A DNA stretch of 64,000 bases from Hyphomonadaceae bacterium (GTDB taxonomy: Bacteria > Pseudomonadota > Alphaproteobacteria > Caulobacterales > Hyphomonadaceae). The notes beneath the pieces were generated by a model. That model saw only the letters and a program-made list of their open reading frames with translations. It was not told the origin of the DNA and ran no database searches. Shown here piece by piece: positions 52,689 through 57,961 of the stretch (within the stretch, counting starts at the first letter, position 1; each line of letters opens with the position of its first letter). The DNA is taken from contig JALHLR010000001.1 of the NCBI GenBank assembly GCA_022844475.1, positions 62,001-126,000 of the forward strand, written 5' to 3'. Both the position numbers and the translations under genes were made by a program.

Positions 52689-53723
52689 CTATAGCCCCAA
52701 CCGATAGAATCTGTTCGCAGTGCCGTAGAACAGCTCCTGCTTCTCGTCTGCACTCGCGCCCGCCGCCGTCAGCTTCAGCGCATTCCACAACGTCGGGTAG
52801 TCGCAGCTCACCTCGTCGACGGGGAAGTTGCTCTCGAACATTGCGCGCTTCGCGCCGAACGCCTCGATGCATGTCTCGATATAGGGGCCCCACTCCTTCG
52901 CCAGCTGCTCGGACGGCGCGCGCGTCTCCGACAGCATCGACGGGAAATTGCAGAACGGCATGGCCAGCCCGCCCAGCTTCACATGCACATTCTCGCATTT
53001 TGCCAGCGCGCGGATATTCTCGCGCCACACGCCGAAGCGCTCCGGCAGCCTGCCCGCATAGCTCGCAATCCCCAGCGGCGTGCCGACATGGTCCAGCACG
53101 ATAGGCGTCTCCGGAAACTGTCGCGCCAGGTCGACCAGCTCCGGCAGTTGCGGCTCCATCATCCACGCGTCGAACGACAGGCCGCGCTTGCCCAGCTCGG
53201 CAAAGCCTTCGCGAAATTTCCGCTCCATCATCACGCCCGGGGGATTGCGGTTCAGCGGCCCCAGCACGCCCGCATCCGCATCATACGATGTCGACCGCCG
53301 TATGCCCTTGAACCGCCTGGCCCCCGCCGCGATGTGCGCATCCAGCACGCGGCCAACCTCCGCCCCAAGCAACAATTCTGCCGTGCTAACAATCCCCGCG
53401 CACGCCAGCGTCTTGCCATACAGTCCGCTGGCGGCCATCGCCGCGACACCGTTGACGAACTCGGTCTCGCCAACGCACTTCATCTCGGCCGGCCCCTCCG
53501 CGCGATACATCGAGCGGCACTCGAGATAGACGGTCGCCACAATGTTGTGCCCGCTGGCTGTGTCCCCCAGCAGCTGATCCAGCAGGTAGTGTCCTTTGCG
53601 ATAGCTGATGTGCTCGAAGGGATGCACGGGTGGCGGGATCAGGTGCATCACCGGCCGCCGATCCCATAGATGGTGGTGCGGGTCGATGATCGGCAGGTCC
53701 GGGTCGATGATCGCTTCAGGCAT
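52689..53723 (-). CDS. Amidohydrolase family protein (TIM-barrel, PDC-hydrolase-like)
   Basis: A 344-residue amidohydrolase_2 protein. The metal-binding DPHHHLWD is at the N-terminus, followed by a barrel with LSFDAWMMEPQLPELVDLARQFPETPIVLDHVG and the C-terminal KRAMFESNFPVDEVS, where a late Asp completes the site. Such enzymes hydrolyse or decarboxylate lactones and aromatic acids. The ATG at 53723 is used. It is followed by the small gene at 52351-52683. Confidence 0.9.
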   Translation of the reverse strand: MPEAIIDPDLPIIDPHHHLWDRRPVMHLIPPPVHPFEHISYRKGHYLLDQLLGDTASGHNIVATVYLECRSMYRAEGPAEMKCVGETEFVNGVAAMAASGLYGKTLACAGIVSTAELLLGAEVGRVLDAHIAAGARRFKGIRRSTSYDADAGVLGPLNRNPPGVMMERKFREGFAELGKRGLSFDAWMMEPQLPELVDLARQFPETPIVLDHVGTPLGIASYAGRLPERFGVWRENIRALAKCENVHVKLGGLAMPFCNFPSMLSETRAPSEQLAKEWGPYIETCIEAFGAKRAMFESNFPVDEVSCDYPTLWNALKLTAAGASADEKQELFYGTANRFYRLGL

Positions 53724-53779
53724 GGAGGTTTCCCCGCTTCTGATGCGGACCATCCGGCAAATTCACGGCGATGGAAAGT

Positions 53780-54421
53780 CTACTCCAGCCCCTTGCGCTC
53801 GCGATACCAGGCTACAAACGCCTTCGCCCGCGCGCCGGCTTCCGCCTCGACCTCGTTCCAGCCGAACGCATAACGCGCTGCAAAGGTCGACAGCCCCCAG
53901 TCGGTATACTGCTGCACGTGGTGGATCTCGTGCGCCCACAACGCGAGGCTCGAGACATAGCTCTCGTCCTTGAACACCACCGTGTCGATCAGCGTCACAG
54001 CCGCTGCGCGCCCGTTGCGGATTGCAAAGCCAGCCAGCCCCGCCTGGCTGGTGTCGCCGATCGTGTAGCGCACATTCTCCAGCAGCTCCGCCGGATAGAA
54101 CGGGATCAGCTCGCGCTTCACTTCCTCGGGGATCGGCTTCGACTCCGGCCGCACCGCATCGCGCGACCGCTGCAGCGCCGATGCCAGCGTCTGCGACACC
54201 ACATTGCCTGTGTACTGCGTCTGCACCTGCACGAAGCCGCGTGTGAAATTGGTCAGGTGGCCGCTGACGGTCGGCTTCACCGGAGCGGCCGTGGTGGAAT
54301 TCGGCGCCACAGGACGCGGCGCAACCCCGCTGGCCCCCGCCGCATTGGCAGCGGTCTGGGCCGCGACAGGCGCTGCGCCCACGATCATGGTGGCGAGGGC
54401 AAGCAGCGCAGGTCGAAGCAT
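53780..54421 (-). CDS. Secreted DUF4157-type metallopeptidase-like protein
   Basis: A 213-residue protein with a signal peptide (to about AAQ, residue 22) and an Ala/Pro/Thr-rich linker. Its domain carries HEIHH (164-168) in ALWAHEIHHVQQY, followed by WNEVEAEA, which supplies a third ligand. This is the DUF4157 zinc-peptidase-like pattern, whose members accompany secretion and toxin proteins in some bacteria. Activity is inferred only. The frame is open far upstream, but the ATG at 54421 (MLRPALLALATMIVG) starts the signal peptide. It is divergent from the TIR gene, sharing 138 bases of regulatory DNA. Confidence 0.8.
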   Translation of the reverse strand: MLRPALLALATMIVGAAPVAAQTAANAAGASGVAPRPVAPNSTTAAPVKPTVSGHLTNFTRGFVQVQTQYTGNVVSQTLASALQRSRDAVRPESKPIPEEVKRELIPFYPAELLENVRYTIGDTSQAGLAGFAIRNGRAAAVTLIDTVVFKDESYVSSLALWAHEIHHVQQYTDWGLSTFAARYAFGWNEVEAEAGARAKAFVAWYRERKGLE

Positions 54422-54559
54422 GGATCCCCCGGAAACGTGGAGCGGATGCTGATGAGCTGCCCGATCGCCCATGAATGAGCCGTGAATGTGGCAGGGCTCC
54501 TGTTCCCGCAAGCATGACAGCTGCCGCATCCATTGATAGGCAGGCGAGGGGAGAATCGC

Positions 54560-55285
54560 ATGACCCACCTTTTCATTTCGCACTCGACGCGCGATGGCGG
54601 CCTCATCGCTCAGCAGCTGTCCGCCGCACTCGAAGCTGCGGGCCATCGCTGCTGGATCGCCCCGCGCGACGTGAAACCCGGGGTTCCCTATCCAGGCCAG
54701 ATCGTCACGGCGATCGAAGGCAGCGCAGGCCTCGTCCTCCTCGTCACGCCCGCCGCTAACGAAAGTCCCGATGTGCTGCAGGAGATCCAGCTTGCCTCCA
54801 CAGCGCGAAAAACGATCGCGCCTGTGATCGTTTCCGGCTGCACGCCGGGCCCAGACCTGCGGTATTTTCTTGGCGTCCGACACCAGATCCCGTGGAGCGA
54901 CGCGCGCGGCACAACCGCGGAGCTTATGCGCTCGTTTCCTGCAGCGGCCCTGCCGCGTTCGACGATCGGCGACGCAATGCACAAGTTCGTTGACGATGCG
55001 CGCGCCGCGGGAAGTATTCCGCCTGTCGCGGGCGTCGAGTCGTCCGTAGACGCCAACCAGACCTTCGACGTCTTCATGCTGATGCCTGGCCAGAGCAAGA
55101 TCAACGTCATCAAGGTGGTCCGCGAGTACACCGGTTGGGGTCTTGCCGAGACGAAGCAGATCGTCGAAGGCTTTCCGCCCGTTCGTGTCGGCCTCTCCAT
55201 GCCAAAGGCCCGGGCCGAGCACATGATCCGAGACCTCAAGTCGGTCGGTGCTACAATGATGCCGCTCGCGCCTCACAAGTCCTAG
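54560..55285 (+). CDS. TIR-domain protein fused to a ribosomal L7/L12-type C-terminal domain
   Basis: A 241-residue cytoplasmic protein. Residues 3-115 are a bacterial TIR domain: LFISHSTRDGGLIAQQL, WIAPRDVKPG, AIEGSAGLVLLVTP and SPDVLQEIQLA, where Glu75 falls at the NADase catalytic position. After a linker (about 118-165), residues 168-236 align with the L7/L12 C-terminal domain. Lys180, Ile184, Lys185, Arg188, Gly194-Leu195, Lys199 and Val202-Glu203 match the E. coli K65, I69, K70, R73, G79-L80, K84 and V87-E88 surface that contacts EF-G, EF-Tu and IF2. GGGGAG precedes the ATG. The TIR part may cleave NAD or make a signal. Its stop overlaps the convergent GrpB gene by four bases. Confidence 0.9.
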   Translation: MTHLFISHSTRDGGLIAQQLSAALEAAGHRCWIAPRDVKPGVPYPGQIVTAIEGSAGLVLLVTPAANESPDVLQEIQLASTARKTIAPVIVSGCTPGPDLRYFLGVRHQIPWSDARGTTAELMRSFPAAALPRSTIGDAMHKFVDDARAAGSIPPVAGVESSVDANQTFDVFMLMPGQSKINVIKVVREYTGWGLAETKQIVEGFPPVRVGLSMPKARAEHMIRDLKSVGATMMPLAPHKS

Positions 55286-55833
55286 CCGCCAGCTGACCAC
55301 GCATTTGCCCGCTCGAGGCAAGCGCGTATCCAGCCCGACTTGTGATCGTTGTAGGCCATCGAGTTGTCGGGATGCGCCGCAGCCGCCTTGCGCTTGGTCG
55401 TCTCGTACGCCTGCGCCTCATCCGGGTGCGCAAGCAGAAAGTCGCGAAAGGCAAGCTGGCGGGCAATGTTCGCGTTTCCCTCCGCATAGAAGTGGACATG
55501 GAACACACGCTTCCCGTTGCGCTCCAGTATGCAGTAACGCCGCCCTTCAATCCCGAACGCGCCACGCCACAGATAGCCCAGCGCCTCGATATCAGCCCGT
55601 CGCGCTTCAAGCCCCTCAAGGCTCCGCACCACCGGCATCAGGTCCACGACTGGCTTCGCCGCGATGCCGGGGATCGCGGTCGAGCCGATGTGATGTGCCG
55701 CGATCAGATTTTCTCCCAGCACGCTGCCCAGCCGCGCGCCCTCCGCAGCCGCCATCTCCTTCCATGCCGGATAATGCGGTGCGAGCCATACCCGCGTCGC
55801 ATCGGCGATGCGCGCGGCGCGCTCATCCGCCAT
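55282..55833 (-). CDS. GrpB family (UPF0157) nucleotidyltransferase-fold protein
   Basis: A 183-residue protein of the GrpB/UPF0157 family, recognised by HHIGSTAIPGIAAKPVVDLMPVV, which is a nucleotidyltransferase-like GS...D motif, and FHVHFYAEGNANIARQLAFRDFL. GrpB relatives share the polymerase-beta NTase fold with kanamycin nucleotidyltransferase and MNT toxins. The function of chromosomal copies is unknown. The first 11 bases overlap the end of uvrC, and the stop overlaps the TIR stop tail to tail. Confidence 0.9.
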   Translation of the reverse strand: MADERAARIADATRVWLAPHYPAWKEMAAAEGARLGSVLGENLIAAHHIGSTAIPGIAAKPVVDLMPVVRSLEGLEARRADIEALGYLWRGAFGIEGRRYCILERNGKRVFHVHFYAEGNANIARQLAFRDFLLAHPDEAQAYETTKRKAAAAHPDNSMAYNDHKSGWIRACLERANAWSAGG

Positions 55834-57961
55834 GGAAGAAATCGTAGATCCGCCGCGCGAGAGCCTCGTTCACACCCTCCACGGTCTGCAGGTCCGCCAT
55901 CGTCGCACGGCTCACGCCCTTGGCCGAGCCAAAGCGGTTCAGCAGCGCCTTCTTGCGCCGCACGCCGACACCCGCAATTTCATCCAGCGGGTTCTGTCCA
56001 GCGATCGCCGCGGAGCGCTTGGCCCGATGCGCACCGATCGCCCAGCGGTGCGCCTCGTCGCGCAGTCTTTGCAGGTAGTACAGGGCAGGGTCGTTCGGCG
56101 GCAGCTGGAACGGCGCGCGCCCCGGCCGGAAGAACTGCTCCCGTCCCGCATTCCGGTCCGGCCCCTTCGCGATGGCGACAAGGTTCAGCTCGCCCGGCCT
56201 GAAGCCCACCGCTTCAATCGCCTCCTTCGCCGCTGACAATTGGCCCAACCCGCCATCGATCAACACCAGATCAGGCCACGCATCGGGCTTCCTGCTTCCC
56301 TCAGCCCGACGGACTGATGGAGGTAGATCGCTCGCACTTGCAAGCGAGACCGAGGGGGGGGCAGCTCCAGCATCAGAGGGAGGCAATGGATCGACAGCTG
56401 GAGCATTCAACTCCTCCCACTCCTTCTTCAGCCGCGCAAACCGCCGCCGCATCACCTCGCGCATCATGCCGTAGTCATCACCGGGCTCGAGATCGACGTC
56501 GCGGATGTTGAACTTGCGATAGGCGTTCTTCTCGAACCCGTCCGGCCCCGCCACCACCATGCCGCCCACCATGTTCGTGCCCATGATGTGGCTGTTGTCA
56601 TAAACCTCGATGCGCTTCGGCGCCTCGGCCAGATCGAAGACTTTCTGCACCGCCGCAAAGATCTTCTGCTGGCTCTGCGTCTCGGCCAGCTTCCGCCCAA
56701 GCGCCTCTCTCGCATTCAACGTCGCCTGCGCCACGATCCCGCGCTTCTCGCCGCGCTGCGGCGTGCGGATCTCCACCTTGTGCTCTGCCTTCATCTCCAG
56801 CGCCTCGGTCATAAGATCCCACTCCTCGATCTCGCGATTGAGGAGGATCAGCTTCGGCACAGGCTTGTCATCATAGAACTGCGCGATGAACGCCGTCAGC
56901 ACCTGCTCTGACGAGTCATCGCGATCATGCTTGGGATACCAGACCGTCGCGCCCCAATTCTGTCCCGCCCGGAAGAAGAAGGCCTGCACTGCAGACGCCC
57001 CTGCCTCCGAATGAATGGCGAATACATCCGCCTCCACAAGCCCGTCGGGATTGACGCTCTGGCTCTGCCGTACCGACGACAGCGCGCGAATGCGATCCCG
57101 CAACGCGCCGGCACGCTCATAGTCCATGTTCTGCGCCGCGCGCTCCATCTGCGCCACCAGCTGTTGCTGCAGCGTCTCGGCGTCGCCGTTGAGAAATCGC
57201 TCAGCTTCCCGAACAAGATCACGATACTCGTCCAACGGGATCAACCCGGTGCATGGCGCCGAACACCGGCCCATCTGGTGCAGCATGCAGGGCCGCGAGC
57301 GCGTCGCGTAGATATTGTCCGTGCATGTTCGCAGCAGGAAGGCCTTCTGCAGCGTGTCCAGCGTATGATCGACGGCGCCGGCCGACGCGAACGGACCAAA
57401 ATACTTCCCCTTGATCCGCTTCGCTCCACGATGCTTCAGCGCCTGCGGCGCCTCATGGTCCTCGCGGATCAGAATGTGCGGAAAGCTCTTGTCATCCCGC
57501 AGGATGATGTTGAACCGCGGCTTCAACTTCTTGATCAGGTTCGCTTCAAGCAGCAGCGCCTCTGTTTCGCTCGCCGTGACCACGAACTCCATCGTCCGCG
57601 TCAGCGAGATCATCCGCGCGATGCGCTGCGTCTGCCCGCCGATCTTGGCGTAGTTCGAAACCCGCGCCTTCAGGTTCCGCGCCTTGCCGACATAGAGCAG
57701 CTCGCCGGTCTCGCCGAACATCCGATAGACGCCCGGCTTCCCCGGCAGGCGGCTAACCTGGTCGCGGATGATGTCAGGGCCCGACATCCGCTTCTTCTTT
57801 GTACCGTCCGCGGAATCAATCTCGACGCCAGAGGAGATTTCCTCCGGCTCCATCTCGATCGCGTCGGGCAGGTCGTCCGCCAAGTCGTCGGCGTTGTCGA
57901 CCGCATCCTCGGGCAGGTCGTCCGGCGTTTCCTCGGGGATTTTGGGGTCTTCCGATTCCAT
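55823..57961 (-). CDS. uvrC: Excinuclease ABC subunit C
   Basis: A 712-residue UvrC, the nuclease that makes both incisions in nucleotide-excision repair. An acidic N-terminal extension (about 1-55) precedes the GIY-YIG domain (KPGVYRMFGETGELLYVGKA). A Cys-rich region (RPCMLHQMGRCSAPCTGLI), the UvrB-binding UVR helix, the RNase H-like C-terminal nuclease (RIEVYDNSHIMGTNMVGGMVV, LVLIDGGLGQL) and two HhH motifs follow. Within the nuclease domain a Pro/Ser-rich stretch of about 35 residues (VDPLPPSDAGAAPPSVSLAS onward) interrupts the fold. The ATG at 57961 is used; an ATG at 58003 is possible. Confidence 0.95.
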   Translation of the reverse strand: MESEDPKIPEETPDDLPEDAVDNADDLADDLPDAIEMEPEEISSGVEIDSADGTKKKRMSGPDIIRDQVSRLPGKPGVYRMFGETGELLYVGKARNLKARVSNYAKIGGQTQRIARMISLTRTMEFVVTASETEALLLEANLIKKLKPRFNIILRDDKSFPHILIREDHEAPQALKHRGAKRIKGKYFGPFASAGAVDHTLDTLQKAFLLRTCTDNIYATRSRPCMLHQMGRCSAPCTGLIPLDEYRDLVREAERFLNGDAETLQQQLVAQMERAAQNMDYERAGALRDRIRALSSVRQSQSVNPDGLVEADVFAIHSEAGASAVQAFFFRAGQNWGATVWYPKHDRDDSSEQVLTAFIAQFYDDKPVPKLILLNREIEEWDLMTEALEMKAEHKVEIRTPQRGEKRGIVAQATLNAREALGRKLAETQSQQKIFAAVQKVFDLAEAPKRIEVYDNSHIMGTNMVGGMVVAGPDGFEKNAYRKFNIRDVDLEPGDDYGMMREVMRRRFARLKKEWEELNAPAVDPLPPSDAGAAPPSVSLASASDLPPSVRRAEGSRKPDAWPDLVLIDGGLGQLSAAKEAIEAVGFRPGELNLVAIAKGPDRNAGREQFFRPGRAPFQLPPNDPALYYLQRLRDEAHRWAIGAHRAKRSAAIAGQNPLDEIAGVGVRRKKALLNRFGSAKGVSRATMADLQTVEGVNEALARRIYDFFHGG

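What the first reader, a model, noticed from the sequence alone, without database searches (positions are those of the whole stretch)
54560..55285. TIR domain fused to a ribosomal L7/L12 C-terminal domain
Seen: an N-terminal TIR domain with Glu75 at the NADase position, followed by residues 168-236 that match the L7/L12 C-terminal domain position by position. The match includes the Lys/Ile/Lys/Arg/Gly-Leu/Lys/Val-Glu face that binds translational GTPases. Known: TIR proteins in bacteria make or use NAD-derived signals in immunity and abortive infection; the L7/L12 CTD recruits EF-G, EF-Tu and IF2. Inference: the fusion may tether a TIR enzyme to translation factors, sense translation status or phage shut-off of translation, or be activated by a stalk-like partner. 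I know of no described system with this architecture.
Basis: partly seen in the sequence, partly recalled or inferred. Interest (0 to 1): 0.88.

Follow-up and report, generated by a model that had tools for sequence, protein, structure and literature searches.

The report
TIR enzyme carrying a ribosome-stalk head
A small bacterial protein joins an immune-type TIR enzyme to a copy of the ribosomal-stalk domain that normally catches translation factors, so it may watch or attack through the protein-making machinery; the join is real and conserved, but what it does is untested.

Summary
Window 54560-55285 (+) encodes a 241-aa protein: an N-terminal TIR domain (Pfam TIR_2, residues 5-116, E 3.6e-18) and a C-terminal ribosomal L7/L12 C-terminal domain (PF00542, residues 169-232, E 4.5e-15), both over Pfam's cut-offs. 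Predicted folds agree: the CTD matches solved L12 (1ctf, rmsd 1.4 A), the TIR best matches SARM1 and SPARTA. It is no artefact: four genomes of one genus (4 of 15 held; two titled Hyphomonadaceae MAGs) carry it at the same chromosomal site. TIR and CTD are conserved while the linker drifts. Within the CTD the helix 4-5 face that docks EF-Tu is most conserved (19 of 24 residues invariant, 15 of 45 elsewhere). No other genome in the family (105 genomes) or in the order, class and phylum samples showed it. My best reading: a one-gene TIR effector whose sensor is a transplanted stalk domain that docks translational GTPases, or proteins that bind stalks. NADase activity, partner and defence role are inferred. 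bL12 domains inside larger phage proteins and stalk capture of the CRISPR effector Cami1 are precedents for the parts; the papers my searches listed showed no TIR-L12 protein. New variant of a known kind.

The parts
54560..55285 (+). TIR-L12 fusion gene, 241 aa
   Evidence: ORF and translation; Pfam; full-length matches in 4 of 105 family genomes
54572..54907 (+). TIR domain, residues 5-116
   Evidence: TIR_2 E 3.6e-18; predicted fold pLDDT 83, best Foldseek matches SARM1 and SPARTA TIR-APAZ
54782..54784 (+). Glu75 codon, the position of the NADase glutamate (label recalled)
   Evidence: invariant in 9 of 9 aligned TIR domains, chosen from those fetched
54938..55060 (+). variable hinge, residues 127-167
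   Evidence: 2-9 identical residues per pair and many indels among the four orthologues
55064..55255 (+). ribosomal L7/L12 C-terminal domain, residues 169-232
   Evidence: PF00542 E 4.5e-15; predicted strand-helix-helix-strand-helix order, block pLDDT 77-91; Foldseek 1ctf TM 0.87 by target, rmsd 1.4
55097..55168 (+). helix 4-5 segment, residues 180-203, equivalent to the EF-Tu-docking face of L12
   Evidence: 19 of 24 positions invariant in four orthologues against 15 of 45 in the rest of the CTD
53780..54421 (-). divergent neighbour: protein with an eCIS_core domain, signal-peptide-like N-terminus by eye
   Evidence: PF13699 E 2.2e-8; matched in 14 of 15 genus genomes
55282..55833 (-). convergent neighbour: GrpB family protein
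   Evidence: PF04229 E 1.7e-43; absent beside the fusion in L005/G012
55823..57961 (-). uvrC, conserved flank of the site (712 aa; named by eye)
   Evidence: 712-aa frame without stop, and similar order in the genus loci
52689..53753 (-). amidohydrolase, outer flank
   Evidence: PF04909 E 1.7e-35

Best explanation
It is a single-gene TIR effector whose sensing or targeting part is a transplanted ribosomal-stalk domain. Shown: the fused domains, their folds by prediction, their joint conservation and the selective retention of the helix 4-5 docking face. Inferred: the L12 domain docks translational GTPases (EF-Tu, EF-G, perhaps IF2 or RF3) through helices 4 and 5, off the ribosome, because the L12 N-terminal part that anchors L12 to L10 is missing. 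The variable hinge lets the TIR domain reach neighbours. When the state or crowding of those factors changes, for instance when a phage or toxin alters translation, TIR domains come together and consume NAD or make an NAD-derived signal, stopping the cell.
For: Both domains over Pfam cut-offs. CTD fold and TIR fold, nearest to SARM1 and SPARTA. Glu75 invariant in 9 of 9 TIRs. Helix 4-5 constrained: 19/24 invariant against 15/45, Fisher p 3.7e-4. Of positions at least 80% conserved in 19 rplL proteins, all four fusions keep 14 of 20 in helix 4-5 but 6 of 21 outside, p 0.013. K65 and K70 equivalents are kept in 4 of 4; their mutation weakens EF-Tu binding (PMC10602876, passages), and helices 4-5 of L12 are the partner of EF-Tu helix D (PMC5770553, passages and reference title). 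No L12 N-terminal domain: Pfam at E <= 1 lists only two TIR families and the L12 CTD.
Against: No activity or binding was measured. The equivalents of K81, K95 and K107 are lost in all four, and residue 193 has changed from Leu to Trp or Met, so the partner may have changed. Hairpins like helix 4-5 also occur in membrane-anchored-looking proteins of unknown role, so the motif alone does not prove GTPase docking. Isolated L12 domains bind GTPases weakly (recalled). Nine neighbouring proteins show no PADLOC match. The four orthologues are close relatives, so the tests are not of independent data; in the closest pair (window-G5) the rest of the CTD is as constrained as helix 4-5 (dN/dS 0.11 and 0.12), and in G5-G4 helix 4-5 has dN/dS near 1, with dS only 0.12. 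By sequence profile the best solved TIRs are a metazoan TIR-STING and Toll-type TIRs, with SARM1 weaker.
Confidence: 0.4

Rival explanations
1. Integrated decoy: the L12 domain is bait for phage or plasmid proteins that bind the ribosomal stalk. Such a protein binds the copy on the TIR protein, clusters it and sets off the TIR enzyme.
For: Stalk-directed proteins exist: Foldseek listed 8phj, titled cA4-bound Cami1 in complex with 70S ribosome, and Cami1 is called a stalk-captured CARF-RelE nuclease (title of Mogila et al. 2023 in reference lists). Phages carry bL12-domain proteins (PMC6375957, passages), and three were read here on viral contigs. The conserved docking face is the part a decoy must copy.
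Against: No phage protein that binds this CTD is known to me. A decoy would be expected to copy its own host's L12, yet the host rplL is among the less similar L12 proteins compared (27.8 bits against 46.5 for the best).
Confidence: 0.22
2. The L12 fold serves only as a structural or pairing module, or holds the TIR inactive, and no longer binds GTPases.
For: Loss of K81, K95 and K107 equivalents and the Leu to Trp/Met change; hairpins of the same kind in membrane-anchored-looking proteins.
Against: If only folding mattered, the beta strands and helix 6 should be as conserved as the docking helices; over the four orthologues they are not.
Confidence: 0.2
3. A toxin or regulator unrelated to phages: the free stalk domain competes with ribosomes for translation factors, and the TIR part links this to NAD status.
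For: It stands alone, with nine neighbours lacking PADLOC matches; the same site holds unrelated cargo in relatives, including an EF-G fragment.
Against: Patchy presence (4 of 15 in the genus) and exchangeable partners of this TIR are more typical of conflict genes than of housekeeping.
Confidence: 0.12
4. Degenerate or chance fusion without function, or an assembly error.
For: All four carriers are draft assemblies (50 to about 610 contigs); the three with records are titled MAGs.
Against: Four genomes, same domain order, both domains conserved while the linker drifts.
Confidence: 0.02

Closest known systems
Single-chain bacterial TIR effectors with another sensing domain (TIR-SAVED, TIR-APAZ of SPARTA, Cat1 CARF-TIR)
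   Same: TIR effector head (PADLOC SAVED_TIR E 1.8e-11, Aga_TIR E 2.9e-9, both over the TIR part; SPARTA in Foldseek)
   Different: No SAVED, APAZ or CARF match in Pfam; the other half is a ribosomal L12 CTD. Nine neighbours have no PADLOC match.
Ribosomal protein bL12 (L7/L12)
   Same: CTD profile match (positions 1-63 of 67) and predicted fold; docking helices 4-5 kept
   Different: No L12 N-terminal dimerisation/L10-binding part; below NCBIfam's L12 cut-off (51.1 of 84.4 bits); several conserved lysines lost
Phage-encoded bL12-domain proteins (Mizuno et al. 2019, PMC6375957)
   Same: An L12 domain placed inside a larger non-ribosomal polypeptide with factor-binding residues kept (passages)
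   Different: Those are phage proteins, with no TIR mentioned in the passages seen; this is a chromosomal gene with a TIR
Cami1 (CARF-RelE), captured by the ribosomal stalk
   Same: An immune effector that works through the bL12 stalk
   Different: Cami1 is captured by L12; this protein carries L12 itself
Thoeris ThsB / ThcB TIR proteins
   Same: Weak TIR similarity (ThcB4 29.6 bits of a 220 cut-off; ThsB E 3.7e-4)
   Different: Far under cut-off; no Thoeris model matched in nine neighbours

Membership tests
TIR domain superfamily (NADase type) | TIR profile match over the curated cut-off | tested here: met
   PF13676 66.7 bits, cut-off 28
TIR domain superfamily (NADase type) | TIR fold | tested here: met
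   AlphaFold2 pLDDT 83, pTM 0.81; SARM1 and SPARTA TIRs as best Foldseek matches
TIR domain superfamily (NADase type) | catalytic glutamate present | tested here: met
   E75 invariant in 9 of 9 chosen TIRs; that this is the catalytic Glu is recalled from SARM1 and plant TIRs
TIR domain superfamily (NADase type) | NAD hydrolysis or cyclisation | not testable with these tools
   needs an enzyme assay
Ribosomal protein bL12 | L12 CTD profile and fold | tested here: met
   PF00542 56.2 bits, cut-off 25.9; 1ctf rmsd 1.4 A
Ribosomal protein bL12 | N-terminal dimerisation / L10-binding domain | tested here: not met
   no L12 N-terminal match at E <= 1; the N-terminus is a TIR. So it is not a ribosomal protein bL12
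Ribosomal protein bL12 | full-length equivalog score | tested here: not met
   TIGR00855 51.1 bits of 84.4
Ribosomal protein bL12 | GTPase docking residues of helices 4-5 | tested here: met
   equivalents of K65, K70 and K84 kept in 4 of 4, K81 lost; binding itself was not testable
Thoeris | Thoeris TIR protein over cut-off with a linked Thoeris effector | tested here: not met
   29.6 of 220 bits for ThcB4; nine neighbours without PADLOC match
ClpS adaptor (same fold class) | ClpS sequence profile | tested here: not met
   no ClpS family among Pfam matches at E <= 1; ClpS structures rank below the best L12 structures in Foldseek

The most novel reading that the evidence does not exclude
A bacterial immune receptor that has captured a piece of the ribosomal stalk as its sensor: it monitors translational GTPases, or catches stalk-binding phage proteins as a decoy, and answers with a TIR enzyme. 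To my knowledge this would be the first immune protein to carry the stalk domain itself rather than bind it.
Probability: 0.33. Interest if true: 0.85.

Novelty: new variant of a known kind. Interest (0 to 1): 0.62.

Why it matters
If the stalk domain is the sensor, bacteria can read the state of translation, or attacks on it, by copying the docking site of translation factors onto an immune enzyme. That would parallel plant receptors with integrated decoys and make testable the idea that core-machinery domains are recruited as immune bait. The protein is short (241 aa), apparently single-gene and easy to express, so the idea can be tested directly.

Tried and rejected
Recent copy of the host's own rplL: rejected. 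The host rplL CTD scores only 27.8 bits against the fusion CTD, other L12 proteins up to 46.5, and the host rplL has a one-residue insertion (VVPS) that the fusion lacks.

ClpS-like adaptor: rejected, no ClpS profile match at E <= 1; the best L12 structures rank above ClpS.

Wider spread: looked for and not found. Plasmids (35 records) and phages (14 records) had matches, none with one place covering 80% of the query. Viral contigs: scans with A1, A2 and A3 confirmed none. Class (385 genomes), phylum (398) and order (398) samples: no genome outside the genus shows both domains among the matches listed. Caveats: in those three calls at most 7 candidates per genome were scored, the list was cut, searches listed only E <= 1e-14 and 1e-18, and the samples overlap. 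One match (G094, the L011 protein) ran to query position 202, into the CTD; Pfam finds only TIR families in that protein, so I count it as a chance extension. The one genome-contig scan used a single protein and exact peptide words, so it reaches close relatives only.

The first structure job, on the full protein, gave a poor TIR (block pLDDT 25-48 over residues 1-130) with only 4 rows; a TIR-only job with 6 rows gave a good one.

Promoter scan: no promoter-like site at 54300-55500 and one terminator-like site on the minus strand, no more than in shuffles. Ten paper searches were run. Those aimed at a TIR-L12 protein were 20 (20 of 116 papers listed), (6 of 7; 10 of 93; 2 of 2); none listed one, but 'L7/L12' with its slash cannot be searched and most subscription papers are not held. 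Searches gave no new source that I used. In one search the UvrC query was translated in a wrong frame and held stops; one search repeats it in frame.

Full report
WHAT IS THERE. Window 54560-55285 (+) is an open frame of 241 codons starting at ATG. Pfam gives TIR_2 at residues 5-116 (E 3.6e-18) and the ribosomal L7/L12 C-terminal domain at residues 169-232 (E 4.5e-15), both over the curated cut-offs; the only other family listed, PF01582 TIR, stays under its cut-off. NCBIfam's whole-protein L12 model matches only the C-terminal part and stays under its cut-off (51.1 of 84.4 bits). Against sequences of solved structures the C-terminal half finds bL12 proteins (best E 7.5e-11) and the N-terminal half TIR adapters (best E 0.0025). 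The host genome has a separate rplL.

FOLDS. A prediction from the four orthologues gave a confident C-terminal domain (block pLDDT 77-91 over residues 171-240) with the order strand, helix, helix, strand, helix, and a poor TIR. Foldseek matched it to L12 structures, among them 1ctf (TM 0.87 by target length, rmsd 1.4 A) and 8yeq (0.89, 1.2 A). A TIR-only prediction from six rows reached pLDDT 83 and pTM 0.81; the first ranks are human SARM1 and the TIR-APAZ subunit of SPARTA, followed by plant and Toll-type TIRs among the 50 rows shown. SARM1 and SPARTA are NADases by established knowledge. A profile of nine related TIRs, compared by sequence, ranks a metazoan TIR-STING and Toll-type TIRs first and NADases such as Cat1, AbTIR, SPARTA and SARM1 lower, so sequence alone does not fix the enzyme type. 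Glu75 is one of 12 positions invariant in the nine aligned TIR domains; that it is the catalytic Glu is recalled.

WHO HAS IT. Full-length matches occur in 4 of 101 genomes (the host and relatives) and in 4 of 105 genomes of the family, all in the window's genus, where 4 of 15 carry it. The three others match loci L003, L004 and L005 (same scores), titled uncultured Alphaproteobacteria and Hyphomonadaceae MAGs. In samples of the class (385 genomes), phylum (398) and order (398) no genome outside the genus has a match over both domains among the matches listed; the samples overlap, at most 7 candidates per genome were scored, and the lists were cut or limited by E-value. One match that ran to query position 202 (G094) is a TIR protein without any L12 match in Pfam. 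Plasmid and phage records show none. So the fusion is rare and, as far as I could look, confined to one genus.

THE SITE. Fourteen of 15 genus genomes match the eCIS_core-domain gene. Beside it, towards uvrC, 4 of the 14 hold the fusion, 7 are empty up to GrpB or uvrC (G001, G002, G003, G006, G007, G013, G014), and 3 hold something else: a LysE-type gene in G010, an EF-G domain III-IV-V fragment in G008 and about 0.7 kb without a gene that I recognised in G011. G013 also has a DUF433/DUF5615 pair between uvrC and GrpB. The fusion thus looks like a single-gene insertion at a site that takes varied cargo. GrpB is missing beside the fusion in L005, so it is not a fixed partner. Pfam names the three nearest neighbours eCIS_core, GrpB and amidohydrolase; the others at 49.4-60.9 kb look metabolic or repair genes by eye. 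Nine neighbouring proteins have no PADLOC match at E <= 0.001. The rest of the window was not annotated.

CONSTRAINT. Between the four orthologues TIR identity is 94-120 of 126 residues; the linker is nearly unalignable (2-9 identities, lengths differing); the CTD lies between (39-62 of 69). Inside the CTD the helix 4-5 segment (180-203) has 19 of 24 invariant positions, the rest 15 of 45 (Fisher p 3.7e-4). dN/dS there is 0.10-0.15 in four pairs, 0.34 in one, and 1.03 in G5-G4, where dS is only 0.12; in the rest of the CTD it is 0.11-0.61. In the closest pair (window-G5) the two parts do not differ (0.12 and 0.11). As a control I compared 19 rplL proteins from other genomes of the class: of positions at least 80% conserved in rplL, all four fusions keep 14 of 20 in helix 4-5 but 6 of 21 outside (p 0.013). 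The sequences are related, so these p-values are descriptive. PMC10602876 reports that changing K65 or K70 weakens EF-Tu binding (passages). PMC5770553 says that the L7/L12 CTD binds EF-Tu helix D and cites Kothe 2004, whose title names helices 4 and 5 of L7/12 (passages and reference list).

MODULARITY. In G004 a second TIR gene lies directly upstream (L004 5828-6736): its first 120 bases are 90-100% identical per 30-base block to the neighbouring fusion, then identity falls; from about base 200 its GC drops to 0.44-0.60 (locus 0.64), and its C-terminal part has no Pfam match. In G915 a close TIR (E 1.5e-48) sits at the C-terminus of another protein. The TIR head is therefore combined with varying partners, as expected for effector heads.

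L12 DOMAINS OUTSIDE RIBOSOMES. By my reading of its table, six of 385 class genomes have two or more PF00542 matches at E <= 1e-5, the host among them. I searched the other five and three with weak best matches again and opened four of the 14 loci returned: L074 and L068 are membrane-anchored-looking proteins with L12 helix 4-5 hairpins, L071 a 175-aa rplL-like protein, L073 an ordinary-looking rplL. On viral contigs a scan with the host rplL confirmed 11 loci, of which I opened five. Three proteins (L084-L086) put an L12 hairpin or CTD behind another N-terminus and match PHROGs of unknown function; L078 is an rplL of normal length and L082 an rplL beside what looks like rplJ, so perhaps bacterial DNA. 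Mizuno et al. describe phage bL12 domains placed within larger polypeptides with EF-G and EF-Tu contact residues kept, and peptides of a phage bL12-domain protein in 70S fractions; they also report that ribosomes with the tagged phage bL12 could not be purified (PMC6375957, passages). So a transplanted L12 domain is a known kind of part; a TIR partner was not among the papers that my searches listed.

HOW IT MAY WORK. The protein should not join the stalk as L12 does, since it lacks the L12 N-terminal part. The most likely use of the conserved face is to dock translational GTPases or, as a decoy, proteins that target the stalk. Immune use of the stalk has a precedent: the CRISPR effector Cami1 is called stalk-captured (title of Mogila et al. 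2023 in reference lists; [quoted passage not shown] In TIR-SAVED, filament formation brings TIR domains together and switches on NAD degradation (PMC11229360, passage). A CTD that gathers the protein on abundant or clustered targets could do the same. I put this general model at 0.4, the decoy form at 0.22, a purely structural CTD at 0.2 and a non-immune role at 0.12.

VERDICT. The protein is a new domain combination of a known kind (TIR effector with an accessory sensor), rare, selected and untested. Interest is high for its oddity and easy testability, tempered by confinement to four draft genomes of one genus and the absence of any direct functional clue.

Noticed in passing
L052 402-1310 (+), genome G008, same chromosomal site as the fusion: A 302-aa protein with EF-G domains III, IV and V and no G-domain match sits where other species carry the TIR-L12 gene. 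Curious because L12 CTD binds EF-G; may be coincidence.
   Followed up: partly
L004 5828-6736 (+), genome G004: Second TIR gene next to the fusion with a near-identical 5' end and an unrelated, lower-GC C-terminal part without Pfam match.
   Followed up: partly
L074 1126-1800 (-) and L068 1204-1734 (-): Membrane-anchored-looking proteins with L12 helix 4-5 hairpins (two copies in L074); a use of the L12 motif that I know of no description for.
   Followed up: partly
L084 1348-1758, L085 1192-1662, L086 1258-1680 (all +), viral contigs: Phage-contig proteins with an L12 hairpin or CTD behind other N-terminal parts, matching PHROGs of unknown function (phrog_5819, 26927, 23470).
   Followed up: partly
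L001 1330-1707 (+), host rplL: The host's rplL has a one-residue insertion between helices 4 and 5 (VVPSLGL), unlike the other rplL proteins aligned.
   Followed up: no
L047 165-482 and 479-820 (+), genome G013: DUF433 / DUF5615 pair, toxin-antitoxin-like, between uvrC and GrpB near the same site.
   Followed up: no
L043 2245-2783 (G006) and L042 124-671 (G005): GrpB matches fall into two frames, so this gene may be broken or misassembled in these two genomes; described only.
   Followed up: no
window 53780-54421 (-): Small protein with an eCIS_core domain and a signal-peptide-like start, matched in 14 of 15 genus genomes; its other neighbours read here are not eCIS genes by name.
   Followed up: no
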